A DNA stretch of 33,710 nt from Acidobacteriota bacterium (GTDB lineage Bacteria; Acidobacteriota; Blastocatellia; Pyrinomonadales; Pyrinomonadaceae), in the NCBI GenBank assembly GCA_029557535.1, contig JAKQII010000321.1, positions 1 to 33,710 on the forward strand, written 5' to 3'. Positions 2,223-9,738 of this stretch are shown here, piece after piece. How positions within the stretch are numbered: position 1 is the stretch's first letter; each line of letters begins with the position of its first letter. Under the pieces are notes generated by a model, which did no database searches, was not told the origin of the DNA, and worked only from the letters and a program-made list of their open reading frames with translations. The translations under genes and the position numbers were made by a program.

Positions 2223-3191
2223 ATGAAGCGGAGCCTCGGCACAATCATTATTCTATCCCTCGCGGCATTGGTCGGGTCGGCCGCCTGGGCGCGCGTGCAG
2301 TCCGGCACGCTCTCGTGGCTTCACGACGTGGCATTCGCAAGCGCCTCCAAGGGCTTCATCGTTGGCAGCGGCGGCGTGTTTCTTGAGACCGACGATGGCG
2401 GGCGGACGTGGAAAAAAGGCAAAAGTCCGTCGTCCGACTCGCTGAGACAGATCCTGTTCACCAATGAATTGAACGGCTGGCTGCTTTGCGAACGCGACGT
2501 CTACAACCGCGGCTCCAAGGCGTCGTCGTACCTGATGCGCACGACCGACGGCGGCGAGACATGGGATCGCAGCGAGTTCGGCGAGTACGGTCGGGAGCGG
2601 ATCGCAAAGATCTTCTTCAATGACAACGGCGACGGATTCGCGGTCGGCGAGAACGGCACGATACTCGAATTCCGTGACGGAAACTGGACACGGCAAAGAT
2701 CCGCTTTTCGATTTCTTTTTCTTGACGGAGGTTTCAGCGACGCTTCCAAAGCAGTGATCGTCGGCGGCGGAGGAAGCGCGCTGGTCACAGACGACGGCGG
2801 GGAAACCTGGACGCCGTCGAGTTTTCAAACTAAGCCGACCGGAAAACTAAACGCCGTATTTTTCAGGAACCGCTCGACGGGATGGGTCGTCGGGGCAAGC
2901 GGAGCGGTTTATCAAACGCTCAACGGAGGCCGTTCATGGCGCGCTCAAAACAGCGGAGTCGCGGCCGAACTGACTGACATCGAGTTCATCAACAGCGCTG
3001 AAGGCTATGCCGTTGGCGCGGACGGAACGATCATCCACACGCCTAACGCCGGTAACACCTGGACACTTGAAGCGAGCGGCATAAAGCACCGGCTCGAACG
3101 CATCGCGGTCACTGGCAAAACGGTCATCGCGGTGGGTTTCGGCGGGACGATCCTGACTAACGCCGGATCGGGCCCTTCGATTAAGAATTGA
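2223..3191 (+). CDS. Secreted YCF48/BNR-type beta-propeller protein
   Basis: This 322-residue protein has a Sec signal peptide (MKRSLGTIIILSLAALVGSAAWA). The rest consists of six or seven roughly 45-residue repeats, each ending in a GG-x-TW motif (TDDGGRTWKKG, TTDGGETWDRS, TDDGGETWTPS, TLNGGRSWRAQ, TPNAGNTWTLE). Each repeat also carries an aromatic-Gly-x-x-V/A-G motif (GFIVGSGG, GWVVGASG, GYAVGADG). These motifs are typical of YCF48/photosystem-II-assembly-like and BNR propellers, which in non-photosynthetic bacteria have mostly unknown extracytoplasmic roles. The ATG at 2223 has no clear Shine-Dalgarno sequence. The gene is downstream of the EPS genes but separated by 489 bp of repeats, so co-transcription is doubtful. 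Function beyond a binding scaffold is unknown. Confidence 0.85.
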   Translation: MKRSLGTIIILSLAALVGSAAWARVQSGTLSWLHDVAFASASKGFIVGSGGVFLETDDGGRTWKKGKSPSSDSLRQILFTNELNGWLLCERDVYNRGSKASSYLMRTTDGGETWDRSEFGEYGRERIAKIFFNDNGDGFAVGENGTILEFRDGNWTRQRSAFRFLFLDGGFSDASKAVIVGGGGSALVTDDGGETWTPSSFQTKPTGKLNAVFFRNRSTGWVVGASGAVYQTLNGGRSWRAQNSGVAAELTDIEFINSAEGYAVGADGTIIHTPNAGNTWTLEASGIKHRLERIAVTGKTVIAVGFGGTILTNAGSGPSIKN

Positions 3192-3411: not shown

Positions 3412-3487
3412 GGGCATGTACGTCAATTGGTAGACAGCCTCCCTTACAAGGAGGAAGTTAGGGGTTCGAGTCCCTTCGTGCCCACCA
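3412..3487 (+). tRNA. tRNA-Val (UAC)
   Basis: A 76-nt cloverleaf can be drawn by hand. The acceptor GGGCATG pairs with CGTGCCC. The anticodon stem CCTCC/GGAGG encloses loop CTTACAA with anticodon TAC at 3445-3447. The T-arm contains GGTTCGAGTCCC, and the 3' CCA is encoded (3485-3487). It is the first gene of a two-tRNA unit. Confidence 0.96.
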
Positions 3488-3577
3488 TCTTTGAAATTTT
3501 GGATTTTTGATTTTGGGTTTTGGATTCTTCGACTGCACGACAATCGAAAATCCAAAATCGAAAGTCTAAAATCGCCA
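3488..3577. repeat. Inverted heptanucleotide-type repeat pair between two tRNA genes
   Basis: GAAATTTTGGATTTTTGATTTTGGGTTTTGGATT is followed, after about 20 bp, by a run in the opposite orientation (CGAAAATCCAAAATCG, CTAAAATCG). The transcript can therefore fold into a long A/U-rich hairpin between tRNA-Val and tRNA-Asp. It belongs to the same family as the other spacer repeats. Confidence 0.7.
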
Positions 3578-3580
3578 CGC

Positions 3581-3657
3581 GGGGTCGTAGTTCAGATGGT
3601 TAGAACGCCAGCCTGTCACGTTGGAGGTCGCGGGTTCGAGCCCCGTCGGCCCCGCCA
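3581..3657 (+). tRNA. tRNA-Asp (GUC)
   Basis: A 77-nt cloverleaf. The acceptor GGGGTCG pairs with CGGCCCC (one G-U pair). The anticodon stem CCAGC/GTTGG encloses loop CTGTCAC with anticodon GTC at 3615-3617. The T-arm is GGTTCGAGCCCC, the discriminator base is G and the encoded CCA is at 3655-3657. Confidence 0.96.
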
Positions 3658-3722: not shown

Positions 3723-4670
3723 CTATTCGATCGATATCGTGATATCAACGTTCACGGCCTTTTCCGCCGAAACCTGCACGAAATAATCGCCGTTGCCGTT
3801 CAATCTTACCGGAAACTCTTCGGTTTCTTTCACTCTTTCGTTGCTCTCGTAAAGGCCTACATCGCCCCTGAAATCGACGAGTTGTAGGTTCACGTCCGGT
3901 GAATCCGCCGATATTTTCAAGATCTGCCCCTTCGACGCCCGGATCTTGAACCATTTGATCGGTTCACCCGGCGTCAGCCGGACGGTCAGGCTCTTGCTGG
4001 TTTTACCTTTATCGAACGCGACCATCGTTGCCGAATTCTTGTTCCACATCCGCCATTTTCCGGCAATCAGCTTTTTGGCCGATACGATAGTCGCGCCGGA
4101 CGGGGACTCTTCTTCGGTAAACTCATAAACCCTGACAGGCCTGTTGCTTGTCACCCGATATCCTTTGGTTTGATGGAAGCAGCAACCGTCCTTCGAATAG
4201 ACGTAGATCATTTTGTTTCGCGAATCGACTTTGAACATTCCGAGAGAGTACGTAAGTTTCGTCAGGGAATCGTTGTAAACAAACCTATTTGTCGATTTCG
4301 CAAAGAGATAGATCTTATAAACGGGCGAACCGTAGCCGCCTTCATTGCCGCCGTAGATCGCCAGATCCGTCGATCCGTCAAAATTGTAATCGCCAACGAA
4401 AAAGCTCGTCTGATCCTCGCTGTCGTAGGAAACTGTCTCGGGTGCGCCCGATTCCTCCGCGCAGCCCTTGATCGTTTTGAACTTCTGAAAAGCTTTGCTC
4501 TGGCCTTTCTTGAAAACCAAGACGTCAGACGGTCCGGCGTCGCCGTCAGCGTTGCACTTCGGCGAGATGACCTTGACGTCAAAATCGCCGGGAACATTGC
4601 TGATCACGTAAGTCTGTTGTGCCAGTGCGGACGTGCTGAAGAGCAAGACTGACAGGATAAATGCTTTCAT
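3723..4670 (-). CDS. Secreted XAC2610-like protein with C-terminal PPC-like domain
   Basis: A 315-residue protein with a signal peptide (MKAFILSVLLFSTSALAQ) and a good ribosome binding site (AAAGGAG, 7 bases before the ATG). Residues about 90-200 carry FFVGDYNFDGSTDLAIYGGN and YKIYLFAKSTNRFVYN, a pattern I associate with XAC2610-related periplasmic proteins and FG-GAP-like calcium-loop blades (D-x-N-x-D-G). A further aromatic and Cys-rich turn (KDGCCFHQTKGY) follows. The last 80 residues (KWFKIRASKGQILKISAD ... GNGDYFVQVSAEKAVNVDI) look like a pre-peptidase C-terminal beta-sandwich. The function is unknown; some XAC2610 relatives are proposed lysozyme inhibitors. It overlaps the upstream gene by 92 bp in another frame. 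Confidence 0.75.
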   Translation of the reverse strand: MKAFILSVLLFSTSALAQQTYVISNVPGDFDVKVISPKCNADGDAGPSDVLVFKKGQSKAFQKFKTIKGCAEESGAPETVSYDSEDQTSFFVGDYNFDGSTDLAIYGGNEGGYGSPVYKIYLFAKSTNRFVYNDSLTKLTYSLGMFKVDSRNKMIYVYSKDGCCFHQTKGYRVTSNRPVRVYEFTEEESPSGATIVSAKKLIAGKWRMWNKNSATMVAFDKGKTSKSLTVRLTPGEPIKWFKIRASKGQILKISADSPDVNLQLVDFRGDVGLYESNERVKETEEFPVRLNGNGDYFVQVSAEKAVNVDITISIE

Positions 4671-5169
4671 TAGTATCTCCTTTCGGTTCGTTTGAATGTG
4701 TTTTCGGATCCTGCGCGCCGCAACCGGCAGTTAAAACGCCGACCGCCTTGCCGTTCACGATCTGAAATTCTCGCGTATAGGCGCTCTCGTATTCGCGCGT
4801 GTAAACGACGACCTCCATCGTGCCGTCCCTGTCCAGATCCAGGATCGCGGTCACTTCAAAGTCTTTGGGCGACGACTGCCCCATCACCGTGTCTCTCGTG
4901 TAAATATCGCTTCCGATCACGATATTCGCCATCTTTCCCGCAATCATCTTTTGAACGATCAGAAACGAATAACTTCCTTTCCTGATCACTTGCGCCGCCG
5001 CCGTTTCTCGGGTGTCAATATGCCGCGCGATCATGACAGTTTCGTCCTGGCCGTCACCTTCCAGATCGACCCGCAGAGCCTGCTTGATCTCGATTACCGG
5101 ATTCGCGATGCCTTTCGAGCGCAGGAAATCGCGGGCGACTCCCGGGACCGCGCGATCGTTTGGATCCAA
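4579..5169 (-). CDS. FG-GAP-like protein, 5' end unresolved, probably truncated
   Basis: The product contains two EF-hand-like loops (RVDLEGDGQDETVMIARH and ILDLDRDGTMEVVVYTRE) typical of FG-GAP-like secreted proteins. The only conventional start is TTG 5169. However, the same frame is open back to a TAA at 5281-5283 and reads plausible protein there (GIPKFIVYSEQC, SHSITPEVLDPND), with no ATG, GTG or signal peptide. I infer that the original N-terminus was lost or frameshifted. At the other end the frame runs 92 bp into the signal-peptide region of the next gene, so the last roughly 30 residues (QHVRTGTTDLRDQQCSRRF) are an out-of-frame reading and probably not native. A decaying gene is the most likely reading. 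Function unknown. Confidence 0.5.
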   Translation of the reverse strand: MDPNDRAVPGVARDFLRSKGIANPVIEIKQALRVDLEGDGQDETVMIARHIDTRETAAAQVIRKGSYSFLIVQKMIAGKMANIVIGSDIYTRDTVMGQSSPKDFEVTAILDLDRDGTMEVVVYTREYESAYTREFQIVNGKAVGVLTAGCGAQDPKTHSNEPKGDTNESIYPVSLALQHVRTGTTDLRDQQCSRRF

Positions 5170-5302
5170 AACTTCAGGAGTGATCGAATGCGACTGGCAT
5201 TGTTCTGAATAAACAATAAACTTCGGGATCCCATTTCTTTGACCCCGGCATTCAACTGGCCTTTTCCGTCGTAAGCCTTGTTACATTGTTTACTGTTGAC
5301 GA

Positions 5303-6289
5303 CTAGGGGGCCCACACACGCGTGACGGAGTACCTCGTACTACCGTTTATCTTTACTTCTTTGGTCCAGAGATCCAGTTGAATATTGGTTCCGTCGGCTT
5401 TTCTGAGGTAAACAGACCACTCATCCCGGCCCGTTTCCACCAATCTGGCCACTTCGACGTTGTTGAGGGTATACAAGACCCAGACCTTTCCCTGAATTTG
5501 CCGGTATTTGCCGGTTCCCGCCCCGCCATATTCGACCGTTGTCACGTTGAGGCCGTTGACCTGCGATGTCTTCGGCTGTTGCGTGGTAACCGGTATTGTG
5601 ATTGCCGTCGGCGAAATATTTGCAAAGTTGCCGATTATCTTCTGAGGCGTTGAGCACTCGGCAGTAGAGATGGTGTAGCGGAAGTACTGGTCACCACTAA
5701 AGAAATACGCAATGCCATTGCCAAGATTGACTGCCGAATCGACACTGCCCCAAGCCGGCCAGTTTTTCGCGAAATTGCCGGCGATCGGCTTGGGTGGTCC
5801 CTGTACTCTTCCGGAGCTGATCTCGTACCTGATATACTCCCTCCCCTTGAAAAAATAGACATTGCCATTGCCCAGATTCGTCGCTGCATCCACGGTGTCC
5901 CAATTCGGCCAGTTACTGGCGAAGTTTCCGGCAATAGGACTGGGTCCTCCCGAGGTACCTGGCTTCAATCCCAAGCGAACGTATTCCCGTCCCCTGAAGA
6001 TGTAGATGTTGTTGTTAAATTGCGTTGCCGCGTCTATATGGTCCCAACCGGCGTTATATTTTTCCCCGGTAAGGTAATCAAATGAAGAGTTCGTCCTTGT
6101 CAAGGTGCCTGAATTAAGGGAGTAAATTGAATAAAGCTCATCATCGAAGAAGTACGCAGTCCCGGAAGTGTTCGGCTTCAATACTGCGGCACTGTAGTTC
6201 CAGGATTGAGCCTTGACGCATGGGTTCGCGACGAAGATGAAGCCGAAGCAAAATATGGCCATTTTGAACGTTGCAAGTTGTCTTTTCAT
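5303..6289 (-). CDS. Secreted hemopexin-repeat protein A
   Basis: The start is taken at 6289 (AGGAG 5 bases upstream, followed by signal peptide MKRQLATFKMAIFCFGFIFV...KAQ); an upstream in-frame ATG at 6418 would add 43 uncharged-signal-lacking residues and is rejected. The 328-residue product has four hemopexin-like blades at about 33-78, 84-125, 132-174 and 182-222. Each carries a D-A/S-A-x-N-L-G-N-G and YFF-x-G-x-x-Y-x-R-Y signature, with the spacer PIAGNFAxNWPxW. The C-terminal domain (245-327) contains TGRDEWSVYL and NIQLDLWTKEV, a pattern I believe occurs in other bacterial secreted proteins but cannot name. Hemopexin propellers bind proteins, haem or glycans; the ligand here is unknown. 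It is paralogous to the next gene upstream (6512-7429). Confidence 0.85.
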   Translation of the reverse strand: MKRQLATFKMAIFCFGFIFVANPCVKAQSWNYSAAVLKPNTSGTAYFFDDELYSIYSLNSGTLTRTNSSFDYLTGEKYNAGWDHIDAATQFNNNIYIFRGREYVRLGLKPGTSGGPSPIAGNFASNWPNWDTVDAATNLGNGNVYFFKGREYIRYEISSGRVQGPPKPIAGNFAKNWPAWGSVDSAVNLGNGIAYFFSGDQYFRYTISTAECSTPQKIIGNFANISPTAITIPVTTQQPKTSQVNGLNVTTVEYGGAGTGKYRQIQGKVWVLYTLNNVEVARLVETGRDEWSVYLRKADGTNIQLDLWTKEVKINGSTRYSVTRVWAP

Positions 6290-6511
6290 TGTTTCTCCTA
6301 TTCTCTCCCCCTGGTCTGGATTTCGCCCGGCAATCTGAAGTCCACGCGGATGTGCGAAGTCGTTCTTCCGCTTTTCAATCGGATCCGCCAAGAACCCGGC
6401 ATCGATCGGTTTTCTCAATTCAGTTCGATTGTGTGGCCGATCTTCCGGCGACGAAGTTAACCGCCTCCGGATTGTGATCTCATCCGCGCGTATGACTGCG
6501 AATGCCAGGGG

Positions 6512-7429
6512 CTAGTTGGTTTGCACGTAACAGGCTTTCACCTTTCCGGGCGCCGGGTCTCTGCCGAAGTTCCTGGTGTTGCAGGTTATGCTGCCATTCA
6601 CTGTCTTGAAGACGTATCCGCTTGAACGGTTGTAACCATAGGCAACCTGTTGGGTTCCGTTAACGCGGCACACCGTTCCCTCGGATGCGCAGATCCGGGA
6701 ATTAGGCCATTGTCGGGGGCCCTCGGGCTTCTCTACCGATGCGGTGTTCACCGGAGGCGAATACCAATTGCCAAAGTTAGGGATTACCGGCACCGGAGCC
6801 TCAGTCTTCGCCGTGGAGATCGTGTAAAGGAAGTACTGGTCACCCTTGAAGAAGGCAACCTTGCCGTTTCTCAGGTTCAAAGCTGCATCGACATAGTTCC
6901 AATTTGGCCAGGTTACGGCGAAGTTGCCCACGATCGGCGTTGGATCGTTCTCAACCTTCCCCGAGCTGATGTTGTATCTGATGTAGTCCCTGCTATGGAA
7001 GAAGTAGACAATTCCATTGCCGAGATTGACGGCGGCATCCACATAAGTCCAACCGCCGGGCCAGTTGCCGGCGAAATTACCCGCGATCTTCATCCGTTGT
7101 CCACGGGAGGCGCCCAGTCCGACGCCCAGACGAACATATTCCGAACCCAGGAACAGGTATATGCTGCCGTTGAACTGCGTGGCAGCGTCAATACTGTTCC
7201 AGTCCCGAAAGTTGTGCCCGCCGATGTCCGAGATCGACCGGAGTCCCATTATCTGTCGTGTGGGAACAATGTAGTCCCGGTAATTTGGTCCGGTGAACAA
7301 CATCGCAGAACGATTATCGAGAGGCCATTCCACCGCCGCGCCAAGCGTGTTCCAGGTTTGAGCCGTTGCTGTTACCGCTGCGGCCAACATAAGACCCATG
7401 ATCAGGATCGTCGAAATTTGTCTTTTCAT
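6512..7429 (-). CDS. Secreted hemopexin-repeat protein B with Cys-rich C-terminal domain
   Basis: A 305-residue protein with signal peptide MKRQISTILIMGLMLAAAVTATAQ; AGGTGG lies 9 bases before the ATG. Four hemopexin-like blades (about 31-75, 80-122, 129-175, 179-222) share SIDAATQFNGSIYLF, YVDAAVNLGNGIVYFF and KGDQYFLYTISTAK with protein A. Instead of the DEWSVYL domain, the C-terminus (245-305) is a four-Cys module: CASEGTVCRVNGTQQVAYGY ... C283 ... FGRDPAPGKVKAC. This CAsEGxxCxxxGTxxVxYG pattern recurs, to my recollection, at the ends of secreted carbohydrate-active and lectin-like proteins. The two paralogues therefore keep one propeller and swap the tail. Neither has a lipobox or an obvious enzymatic motif. 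Confidence 0.85.
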   Translation of the reverse strand: MKRQISTILIMGLMLAAAVTATAQTWNTLGAAVEWPLDNRSAMLFTGPNYRDYIVPTRQIMGLRSISDIGGHNFRDWNSIDAATQFNGSIYLFLGSEYVRLGVGLGASRGQRMKIAGNFAGNWPGGWTYVDAAVNLGNGIVYFFHSRDYIRYNISSGKVENDPTPIVGNFAVTWPNWNYVDAALNLRNGKVAFFKGDQYFLYTISTAKTEAPVPVIPNFGNWYSPPVNTASVEKPEGPRQWPNSRICASEGTVCRVNGTQQVAYGYNRSSGYVFKTVNGSITCNTRNFGRDPAPGKVKACYVQTN

Positions 7430-7573
7430 AAGCTATTTCCACCTTTCCTTTTGATTTCTTGATTCTTTCCATCGATATCAAATCTGCACGAACAGAAAAT
7501 GCGGTCCGTCTGCTGGCTTGGACTTCAAGATCCCAAACCTTGGGTCGGAATCAGGCCTTTGTAAACTACCGCT
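7430..7573. other. Spacer without recognised feature
   Basis: A 144-bp convergence-free spacer between hemopexin gene B and the stop of the small HTH gene. It contains the promoter and leader region of hemopexin gene B (read leftward), but I cannot identify a confident -10/-35 pair or terminator. Confidence 0.4.
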
Positions 7574-7867
7574 TCACGAATCGTTCGGGTCTGGCCGTAT
7601 GATCGTTTTGTCATCGATCAAGCTCATAATCGATGACAAACACACAACGACCGATTTGTCTCTTGACTCGACCGAATGTGCGGCGTCGTTCTCCAATACC
7701 CGAAAGATCGCGCTTTGACTGATTCCGAGAGAACGGGCCACTTCTTTCGCGTCGAGCATTACCGTGCCACACTGCGGGCACAGGATCTCCTTTTTCAGCG
7801 CTCGATCGGCAACGATGAACCGACGTTTGGTGATTGTCGAGATTCTTAACTTTCGTTTGAATTCCAT
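7574..7867 (-). CDS. Small CPxCG helix-turn-helix protein
   Basis: I place the start at ATG 7867 (97 residues); the 54 residues upstream of it in the same frame look non-coding and cross the start of the divergent regulator. The order is a basic N-terminus (MEFKRKLRISTITKRRF), a CPQCG knuckle (C30, C33), an HTH segment about 39-60 (AKEVARSLGISQSAIFRVLE) and a short tail with C76. The layout (basic strand, CxxC, MerR/excisionase-like HTH, then the end) matches a family of small proteins I have seen in Acidobacteriota. Binding to DNA is likely by similarity; the target is unknown. It diverges from the lectin-domain regulator across about 110 bp, so it may take part in regulating that gene or share its promoter region. 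Confidence 0.65.
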   Translation of the reverse strand: MEFKRKLRISTITKRRFIVADRALKKEILCPQCGTVMLDAKEVARSLGISQSAIFRVLENDAAHSVESRDKSVVVCLSSIMSLIDDKTIIRPDPNDS

Positions 7868-7977
7868 TGGATATTTGGTAGAATTCGTCCGTCCCTGTCG
7901 GCGTCGAACTGGCCGTAATTTACAAGCTGCCGCGACAGAAAGTCCTGATAGAATTCGGATAATTTTTCGGATAAAAC

Positions 7978-9738
7978 TTGGATAGTCGTAAACCGTTGCA
8001 AACACGCGAAACACTTGAATTTGGTGCATTCCGGATCGATTCCGAAAGGCGAAGTCTGCGGCACGGTGAGGACATTGTTCCGCTTACGCCCAAGGAACTG
8101 GAAGTCCTTGTTTTCCTCGTCGAGCACTCCGGAGAGGTCGTTCAAAAGAATCAGCTTCTCGATGCGGTTTGGCCGGATGTTTTTGTCGAAGAGGCGACGC
8201 TCGCGCGGAATATTTCGTGGTTGAGAAAGAAACTGGCCGACTATGAAGATGGTGACGACCTGATCGAAACGGTTCCGAAACGGGGCTACCGGTTTGCCGG
8301 CGGTCTGATCAATGAGGCGGAATCTGAGAATTTGTTGATCGTCGAGGAAGAAACCGTTCGACAGTTTGAACTTGAGGAAAATATCTCGCTCACCAGTTCC
8401 GAGCTGTTGGAGGCCTATCGTGAAGTTTCCGGTATCAAGTCGCCGACCGCGACGGAAGTTGTCGCTGCTTCACGGGCGGTGAAATCAAGTAATCTGGCTT
8501 ACTTCGTCATCGGAACGATCGCCCTTCTCGGGATCGGTCTATTGCTATTCAACGTTTACTTCAAAGGTCCGGGAAACGATCGACGGTTTGCCGGCGTAAC
8601 CTCCACGCCTTCTTCGACTGTGAATCTCGCTCTTGGAAAACCGACCCGCCAGTCGAGCGATGCCGAAAAGAACCGTGGATTGTCATACGAGGCGGTTGAC
8701 GGAAACACCAACGGCAACTGGTTCGAGGCTTCCGTTTCATCAACGGGGAATGATCGAAATGACAAGGTGATGGTTTACGGAACAACGGATCCGTGGTGGG
8801 AAGTGGACCTCGGGGGCGTATACGAAATTCATCAGGTCAAAATCTACCTCAAGACCGACTTGCGCAGCCAGTTCCTCGACAACTTCCGAGTCGACGTGAA
8901 GGACAGTCCCGGTGACAATTATCGGCCGTTTGTCGGAGGAATATTGAAATATGAAGACTTTCGGTCCAGTCCGATCGTACTAACCAACGACGTCAAAGCC
9001 GGTTTCGTCAGGATTCAGATGGTCGGTGCGAGCCGGACATTGTATCTGGCGGAGGTGGAGGTTTTAGGGACTCCGATGCCGGGCGAGAACTACGAGATTC
9101 CTTCGAACTGCCTTCCGAATGACACGCAGATAAGTCTCTTTCCTGAACCGCAATTCCGCGGAGAATGCAGAATTCTGGATCGTCGAAACTACCAAAACCC
9201 GGAGTCGATGGGCGGTGGAACCGGTGAGTTCTATTCACTTTTGGTCGGCACGGATGTAAAAGCGGTTGTGTGCGACGATGTCGACTTCAAAGGAAATTGC
9301 GAAGCGATAATCGCGCAGCGATCGTTTGAAAAGCCAGTTCTATCAGTGAAGATGGCTGACTACTTCAAATTGAAGGACAAGTCGGGCAGTTGCCTCGAAA
9401 CAGGGTCCGAATACTCACGCGGCTCGTCAGCTGTAAGTATGAAACCCTGTGACGACAATGCGAATCAGAATTGGTTCTGGTCCGAATGGGGTGAATTGAG
9501 AATCTCCGCCCGCAAGTGCCTGGATCTGACCGAAGCCGATCAGGTCGTCGCAACGGCATGCGACAAACGAAGGCAGCTCAGAGAGCGTGCACAGCGCTGG
9601 GTCTGGACGCTGAGCGACGAAATCCGCACCGCTACCCGAAACAAAACCTGTCTCACGGTGACGCCTGACGGAACTGTCATGCTCGAAGGTTGCATCTTTA
9701 AGGAAGATCAGATCTGGAGTTTCGAAAAACTACCCTAG
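7978..9738 (+). CDS. Membrane-tethered winged-helix regulator with three extracytoplasmic lectin-like domains
   Basis: A 586-residue one-component regulator. Residues 13-107 form an OmpR/CadC-type winged helix (LTPKELEVLVFLVEHSGEVV, LDAVWPDVFVEEATLARNIS, LIETVPKRGYRFAGG). An acidic linker leads to a single membrane helix (173-192). Outside are an F5/8-type C (discoidin/fucolectin-like) domain (215-364: NLALGKPTRQSS, AVDGNTNGNW, PWWEVDLGG), a beta/gamma-crystallin-like segment (384-452: ISLFPEPQFRGEC, VCDDVDFKGNCE) and a ricin-B-type trefoil (462-584) with Q-x-W signatures QNW, QRW and QIW. The predicted topology puts DNA binding in the cytoplasm and the lectin-like part in the periplasm. CadC-like proteins usually carry TPR, WD40 or small sensor domains there. 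The TTG start is uncertain; the true start may lie a few codons downstream. Both hemopexin genes are close by and are candidate targets. Confidence 0.88.
   Translation: MDSRKPLQTRETLEFGAFRIDSERRSLRHGEDIVPLTPKELEVLVFLVEHSGEVVQKNQLLDAVWPDVFVEEATLARNISWLRKKLADYEDGDDLIETVPKRGYRFAGGLINEAESENLLIVEEETVRQFELEENISLTSSELLEAYREVSGIKSPTATEVVAASRAVKSSNLAYFVIGTIALLGIGLLLFNVYFKGPGNDRRFAGVTSTPSSTVNLALGKPTRQSSDAEKNRGLSYEAVDGNTNGNWFEASVSSTGNDRNDKVMVYGTTDPWWEVDLGGVYEIHQVKIYLKTDLRSQFLDNFRVDVKDSPGDNYRPFVGGILKYEDFRSSPIVLTNDVKAGFVRIQMVGASRTLYLAEVEVLGTPMPGENYEIPSNCLPNDTQISLFPEPQFRGECRILDRRNYQNPESMGGGTGEFYSLLVGTDVKAVVCDDVDFKGNCEAIIAQRSFEKPVLSVKMADYFKLKDKSGSCLETGSEYSRGSSAVSMKPCDDNANQNWFWSEWGELRISARKCLDLTEADQVVATACDKRRQLRERAQRWVWTLSDEIRTATRNKTCLTVTPDGTVMLEGCIFKEDQIWSFEKLP

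What the first reader, a model, noticed from the sequence alone, without database searches (positions are those of the whole stretch)
5303..9738. Possible glycan-response locus: hemopexin secreted pair, small HTH protein and lectin regulator
Two secreted hemopexin propellers with swapped C-terminal domains, a small CPxCG-HTH protein and the lectin-domain regulator sit side by side. Related binding folds thus occur both as secreted proteins and on the regulator. This suggests a dedicated sensing and binding system in which the regulator controls the secreted proteins.
Basis: inference. Interest (0 to 1): 0.72.

Follow-up and report, generated by a model that had tools for sequence, protein, structure and literature searches.

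The report
Membrane regulator driving exported-protein operon
A membrane-anchored gene switch with sugar-binding-type domains sits next to a DNA operator that recurs at the same place in 18 related gene loci, and the operator faces genes for exported, mostly lectin- or adhesin-like proteins, so the bacterium probably senses something at its surface and answers by exporting binding proteins.

Summary
The four genes are real. The two exported hemopexin proteins are nearly unique in the phylum, so hemopexin itself is not conserved at this locus. The locus type is.

The regulator (OmpR/CadC-type winged helix, one membrane helix, then F5/8C, crystallin-like and ricin-B domains) and the small Cys-x2-Cys...His...Cys helix-turn-helix protein form a divergent gene pair. 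That pair recurs dozens of times across the bacterial class. Between the two genes lie 3-4 tandem repeats with an 11-12 bp period and a pair-specific core. The window's core is GGAT, with four copies at 7946-7984.

I found 18 paired loci of the window's subfamily, all in its bacterial family. GGAT tandems occur in 17 of 18, against 1 of 70 other pairs. In every case with room to see it (19 of 19 loci), the gene after the small protein encodes an exported or lipid-anchored protein. The window's sister locus exports crystallin, ricin and both hemopexin C-terminal domains.

It acts through one operon rather than through operators at each hemopexin gene. The sugar ligand, direction of control and small protein's role remain inferred.

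The parts
7978..9738 (+). Membrane-anchored one-component regulator: winged helix (about residues 12-108), one membrane helix (about 172-192), then F5/8C (216-369), crystallin-like (377-444) and ricin-B (456-586)
7946..7984 (+). Tandem operator, four [G/T]GATA repeats at 11, 12 and 11 bp; last repeat overlaps the TTG start codon of the regulator
7857..7884 (+). Likely promoter of the regulator (TTGAAT-16-TAGAAT, TG before second hexamer)
   Evidence: consensus match only
7918..7947 (-). Likely activated promoter of the small gene: AGGACT next to the operator, then TAAATT 18 nt on
   Evidence: same arrangement in 13 of 27 pairs that have A[AG]GACT
7574..7867 (-). Small zinc-site helix-turn-helix protein, 97 aa; C30, C33, H64, C76 invariant in 26 homologues
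6512..7429 (-). Exported hemopexin protein 1, hemopexin propeller plus C-terminal domain D1
5303..6289 (-). Exported hemopexin protein 2, hemopexin propeller plus C-terminal domain D2
4579..5169 (-). FGa, cargo-type gene also found beside crystallin/D1 cargo in G426:C145
3723..4670 (-). FGb, exported XAC2610-related protein, same neighbours in G429:C2 and G426:C145
3676..3691 (-). Likely operon terminator; a stem-loop followed by T's just after FGb
   Evidence: consensus match only, the region as a whole has no more such sites than shuffles

Best explanation
The locus is a surface-sensing cassette. A CadC/ToxR-like regulator sits in the inner membrane with its carbohydrate-binding-type domains outside the cytoplasm. 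It binds the tandem 11-12 bp GGAT operator in the divergent intergenic region, next to a poor -35 element. When its outer domains meet their ligand it activates the promoter facing the small gene. The transcript then carries the small zinc-site HTH protein, both hemopexin proteins and probably FGa and FGb. Binding over its own start codon probably limits the regulator's own expression. Shown by comparison: gene pair, operator, orientation, exported cargo, domain sharing. Inferred: membrane topology, activation rather than repression, operon read-through, ligand, role of the small protein (most likely a co-regulator or feedback factor at the same promoter).
For: Small gene with a regulator divergent: 87 of 99 small-gene hits in fetched loci (some loci overlap), most within about 300 nt. 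In the own genome 5 of 13 long regulators have a divergent small gene against 0 of 6 OmpR-length ones. Exact 5-mer repeats at shift 11: 192 against 10 expected, and at shift 22: 124 against 6, only in the regulator-proximal 110 nt of 73 intergenics. GGAT tandem in 17 of 18 subfamily loci, 1 of 70 other pairs, 1% of shuffles; the other own-genome matches lie inside called ORFs. First downstream gene exported in 19 of 19 subfamily loci and 54 of 63 other pairs, baseline 47%. Own regulators without a small gene also have tandem repeats in several cases and an exported gene directly divergent in about 5 of 8. Sister locus G429:C2 exports crystallin, ricin, D1 and D2 domains and its regulator DNA-binding domain is the window's sister (99/93). 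No stem-loop terminator on the minus strand between small gene and FGb apart from one weak call inside hemopexin 1. 69 of 81 complete paired regulators have one strong hydrophobic segment after the winged helix.
Against: No expression or binding data. The gap small gene to hemopexin 1 is 144 nt and between the hemopexins 222 nt, wide for an operon; internal promoters are possible. My signal-peptide rule is lax (47% baseline). Sequences are related, so counts are not independent. One subfamily locus (G463:C76) keeps the small gene, exported genes and repeats without an adjacent regulator.
Confidence: 0.66

Rival explanations
1. The small HTH protein, not the winged helix, occupies the tandem repeats, as BldC does on direct repeats, and the membrane regulator works through it or against it.
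For: Best PDB profile hits include a putative DNA-binding protein that I recall as BldC (6amk, E 0.06, below significance). BldC binds direct repeats head to tail (PMC5859096). G463:C76 keeps small gene and four repeats without an adjacent regulator.
Against: Own-genome regulators without a nearby small gene still show tandem repeats in some cases (L120, L131, L132). BldC repeats are 9 bp, here 11. OmpR-family domains are known for direct repeats, and ToxR has TNAAA-N5-TNAAA (PMC8517210).
Confidence: 0.2
2. Regulator and small protein only control each other; the exported genes are independent neighbours with their own promoters.
For: Wide gaps before each hemopexin and no GGAT operator there. 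Cargo changes from locus to locus.
Against: Exported genes follow the small gene in 19 of 19 subfamily loci, often with gaps under 100 nt, and exported genes are directly divergent from several regulators that lack the small gene.
Confidence: 0.2
3. The regulator represses rather than activates: it holds the exported operon off until ligand releases it.
For: The last repeat overlaps the regulator's own start codon, a repressor-like position for that gene.
Against: The operator lies upstream of, and next to, a -35-like AGGACT for the small gene with TAnnnT at 17-18 nt in 13 of 27 pairs, the layout of an activated promoter. CadC and ToxR are mainly activators (family knowledge).
Confidence: 0.15

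Closest known systems
CadC/ToxR family of membrane-integrated one-component regulators (CadC, NF007540)
   Same: N-terminal OmpR-type winged helix, single membrane helix, C-terminal outer domain, target genes next to the regulator; the match to the CadC model spans residues 34-191, far below its cut-off
   Different: Outer part is F5/8C, crystallin-like and ricin-B instead of the CadC sensor; divergent small zinc-site HTH partner; subfamily-specific 11-12 bp tandem operators; many paralogues per genome
VtrA/VtrC, ToxR/ToxS and MarT/FidL co-component cassettes (PMC9214523)
   Same: Membrane-anchored winged-helix factor with a small conserved partner gene; MarT/FidL regulate the neighbouring autotransporter MisL, an exported colonisation factor
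   Different: Partner there is periplasmic and encoded downstream on the same strand; here it looks cytoplasmic, DNA-binding and divergent
BldC family of small MerR-like proteins (PMC5859096)
   Same: Small stand-alone HTH protein; a low-confidence model gives HTH, wing and helix
   Different: Carries an invariant C-C-H-C set, no significant sequence match, mostly tied to a membrane regulator in this class

Membership tests
CadC/ToxR-like one-component regulators (what it works like) | N-terminal OmpR-type winged helix | tested here: met
   PF00486 74.3 bits, cut-off 26.2
CadC/ToxR-like one-component regulators (what it works like) | Single membrane helix after the DNA-binding domain | tested here: met
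   Hydropathy peak 2.45 at the expected place; 69 of 81 complete paralogues also. Topology not tested
CadC/ToxR-like one-component regulators (what it works like) | C-terminal sensor outside the cytoplasm activates adjacent target genes | not testable with these tools
   Extracellular-type domains only; needs expression data
E. coli CadC proper (NF007540) | Score above the curated cut-off | tested here: not met
   56.7 bits against 400
BldC family | Significant sequence match to BldC | tested here: not met
   E 0.063 with the family profile against 6amk
Hemopexin-domain proteins (the two exported proteins) | Hemopexin repeats above cut-off | tested here: met
   79.1 and 57.2 bits, cut-off 21.3
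Hemopexin-domain proteins (the two exported proteins) | Haem binding | not tested
   Not inferable from the repeats; no PDB sequence match at E 0.001 for protein 1

The most novel reading that the evidence does not exclude
A widespread, undescribed signalling cassette of one bacterial class: a membrane-integrated winged-helix sensor plus a dedicated small C-C-H-C helix-turn-helix partner, each subfamily with its own 11 bp tandem operator and its own exported cargo. In the window the sensor has taken over the cargo's binding domains, so the cell senses with the same kind of module that its sister loci export.
Probability: 0.45. Interest if true: 0.75.

Novelty: new variant of a known kind. Interest (0 to 1): 0.62.

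Why it matters
If right, dozens of uncharacterised membrane regulators in this class can be matched to their target genes and operators directly from sequence. Subfamily-specific operators give testable sensor-operator pairs, and the small zinc-site HTH family gets a first functional context. It would also offer a route to what these poorly studied bacteria sense and bind at their surface. I found no paper describing the pair in the searchable library, which lacks most subscription journals.

Tried and rejected
Hemopexin as the conserved element: rejected, 2 of 40 relatives and 6 of 396 genomes of the phylum; a scan of named genomes gave one distant hit in a Chitinophagales MAG. GGAT operator upstream of each hemopexin: not there. 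Shared operator across all pairs: rejected, cores differ. Small protein as antitoxin or defence gene: only sub-cut-off HigA-type HTH matches, no PADLOC hit. FGb as a fixed member: its homologues elsewhere mostly lie away from such pairs. AlphaFold of the small protein and hemopexin 2: mean pLDDT 52 and 49 without an alignment, not used for fold search. Sensor of the nine short regulators: no PDB match. The window genome's name could not be obtained; placing it in Acidobacteriota is my inference from gene types.

Full report
What is there. The finding's genes are correctly placed. Two signal-peptide proteins with hemopexin repeats are encoded on the minus strand, 6512-7429 and 5303-6289. Their propellers align well, while the tails are unrelated domains, here called D1 and D2. 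Upstream of them lies a 97 aa protein with C30-P-Q-C33 and a helix-turn-helix, 7574-7867(-). Divergent to it is the regulator, 7978-9738(+): Trans_reg_C, a hydrophobic helix, F5/8C, a crystallin-like stretch and ricin-B.

Hemopexin is not the conserved part. Pfam hemopexin is found in 2 of 40 relatives counting the window's own genome, and any match to hemopexin 1 in 6 of 396 genomes of the phylum, own genome included. In the outside loci that I fetched, the best hemopexin matches are not beside such a regulator pair.

The conserved part is the pair. Searching relatives with the small protein returned places that mostly coincide with places returned for the regulator. In fetched loci, 87 of 99 small-gene hits have a divergent regulator as nearest neighbour, mostly within about 300 nt of the domain starts; some loci overlap, so this is slightly inflated. 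In the own genome five of thirteen long regulators have a divergent small gene, none of six OmpR-length proteins does. C30, C33, H64 and C76 are invariant in 26 homologues, which suggests a metal site. Strong, full-length matches are essentially confined to the class; outside it almost all hits are weak and cover only the HTH.

Each kind of pair has its own operator. In the regulator-proximal 110 nt of 73 intergenics, exact 5-mer repeats peak at shift 11 (192 against 10 in shuffles) and 22 (124 against 6), and not in the remaining part. The cores differ between pairs. The window has [G/T]GATA four times at 7946-7984. On the small-gene side the repeats abut A[AG]GACT, with TAnnnT 17-18 nt further in 13 of the 27 pairs that have that hexamer, which looks like an activated promoter.

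The window's subfamily. A class-wide search with six close small proteins (A3) shows a group of some twenty strong matches, all in the window's family. Eighteen paired loci were examined. GGAT-N7/8-GGAT occurs in 17 of 18, in 1 of 70 other pairs and in 1% of shuffles. In the own genome four other triple-GGAT matches exist, all inside called ORFs, so the window's operator appears private. The regulators' DNA-binding domains are separated from 81 others by a well-supported branch, apart from one further pair (L287) that falls among them; one unrelated OmpR-type protein of the window (20158) was swept into the label and should be ignored. The window's closest relative is G429:C2 (99/93).

Exported cargo. 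In 19 of 19 subfamily loci the first gene after the small gene on the same strand is predicted exported or lipid-anchored, commonly followed by more. The baseline by the same lax rule is 47%. In other pairs it is 54 of 63. Cargo differs: crystallin-like proteins, beta-helix proteins and lipoproteins in the subfamily, cadherin/Calx-beta and endosialidase-chaperone proteins elsewhere. Several own-genome regulators without a small gene have an exported gene directly divergent and some keep tandem repeats. This is the best evidence that the operator serves the exported genes.

Domain exchange. G429:C2 exports a crystallin-like protein and a crystallin-ricin-D1-D2 protein, followed by an FGb homologue; G426:C145 carries F5/8C-crystallin-D1, crystallin-FGa and FGb at a contig end. 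The window's regulator carries F5/8C, crystallin and ricin, and its exported proteins carry D1 and D2. Class-wide, crystallin matches to the sensor lie almost only at these loci. Sensors within the subfamily vary: a three-repeat domain in nine, a PA-IL-like lectin domain in G187 (29.3 bits, cut-off 22.5), beta-propeller repeats in G429 (read from the sequence; propeller repeats occur in 20 of 45 scanned regulators). So lectin-type sensing is seen in at least two members, and the window's sensor probably was replaced by cargo-type domains.

How it probably works. The regulator meets a ligand outside, binds or changes on the tandem operator and activates the promoter facing the small gene. The operon likely continues to FGb, where a stem-loop followed by T's is found at 3691-3676. 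This scan is weak evidence, since the region has no more such sites than shuffles. The operator's last repeat covers the TTG start codon of the regulator in the window and several relatives (read), suggesting self-limitation. The small protein may assist or damp this switch; a BldC-like role on the repeats is the main rival.

Limits. No experiment is available. Counts come from related sequences. The signal-peptide and gene-calling rules were simple scripts. The folds of the small protein, D1 and D2 remain unknown.

Noticed in passing
window 3723-4670: FGb matches NCBIfam XAC2610-related proteins (90 bits, cut-off 35); from memory XAC2610 is an exported immunity/lysozyme-inhibitor-like protein, so part of the cargo may protect against cell-wall enzymes.
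   Followed up: partly
L280 (G463:C76) 8993-9286: Small gene with its exported cargo and four tandem repeats but no adjacent regulator; an apparent loss that could separate the roles of the two proteins.
   Followed up: no
L170 (own genome C251) 3980-5911: Regulator without a small gene, directly divergent from a 1086 aa exported protein, operator with TTCGGAT-like repeats close to the window's core; possible cross-talk.
   Followed up: no
L048, L274, L276-L279, L282, L286, L288 (regulator C-termini): A conserved three-repeat sensor domain (GSxVxLQNxYxxxxxYLDAWG... RDNGSGSWEI) without Pfam or PDB match, possibly a beta-trefoil.
   Followed up: partly
window 3412-3657: tRNA-Val and tRNA-Asp lie between FGb and the gene at 2223-3191; short ORFs called there on the minus strand are antisense to the tRNAs.
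   Followed up: yes
L061 (G001:C35): Three regulator/small-gene pairs in a row on one 16 kb contig.
   Followed up: no
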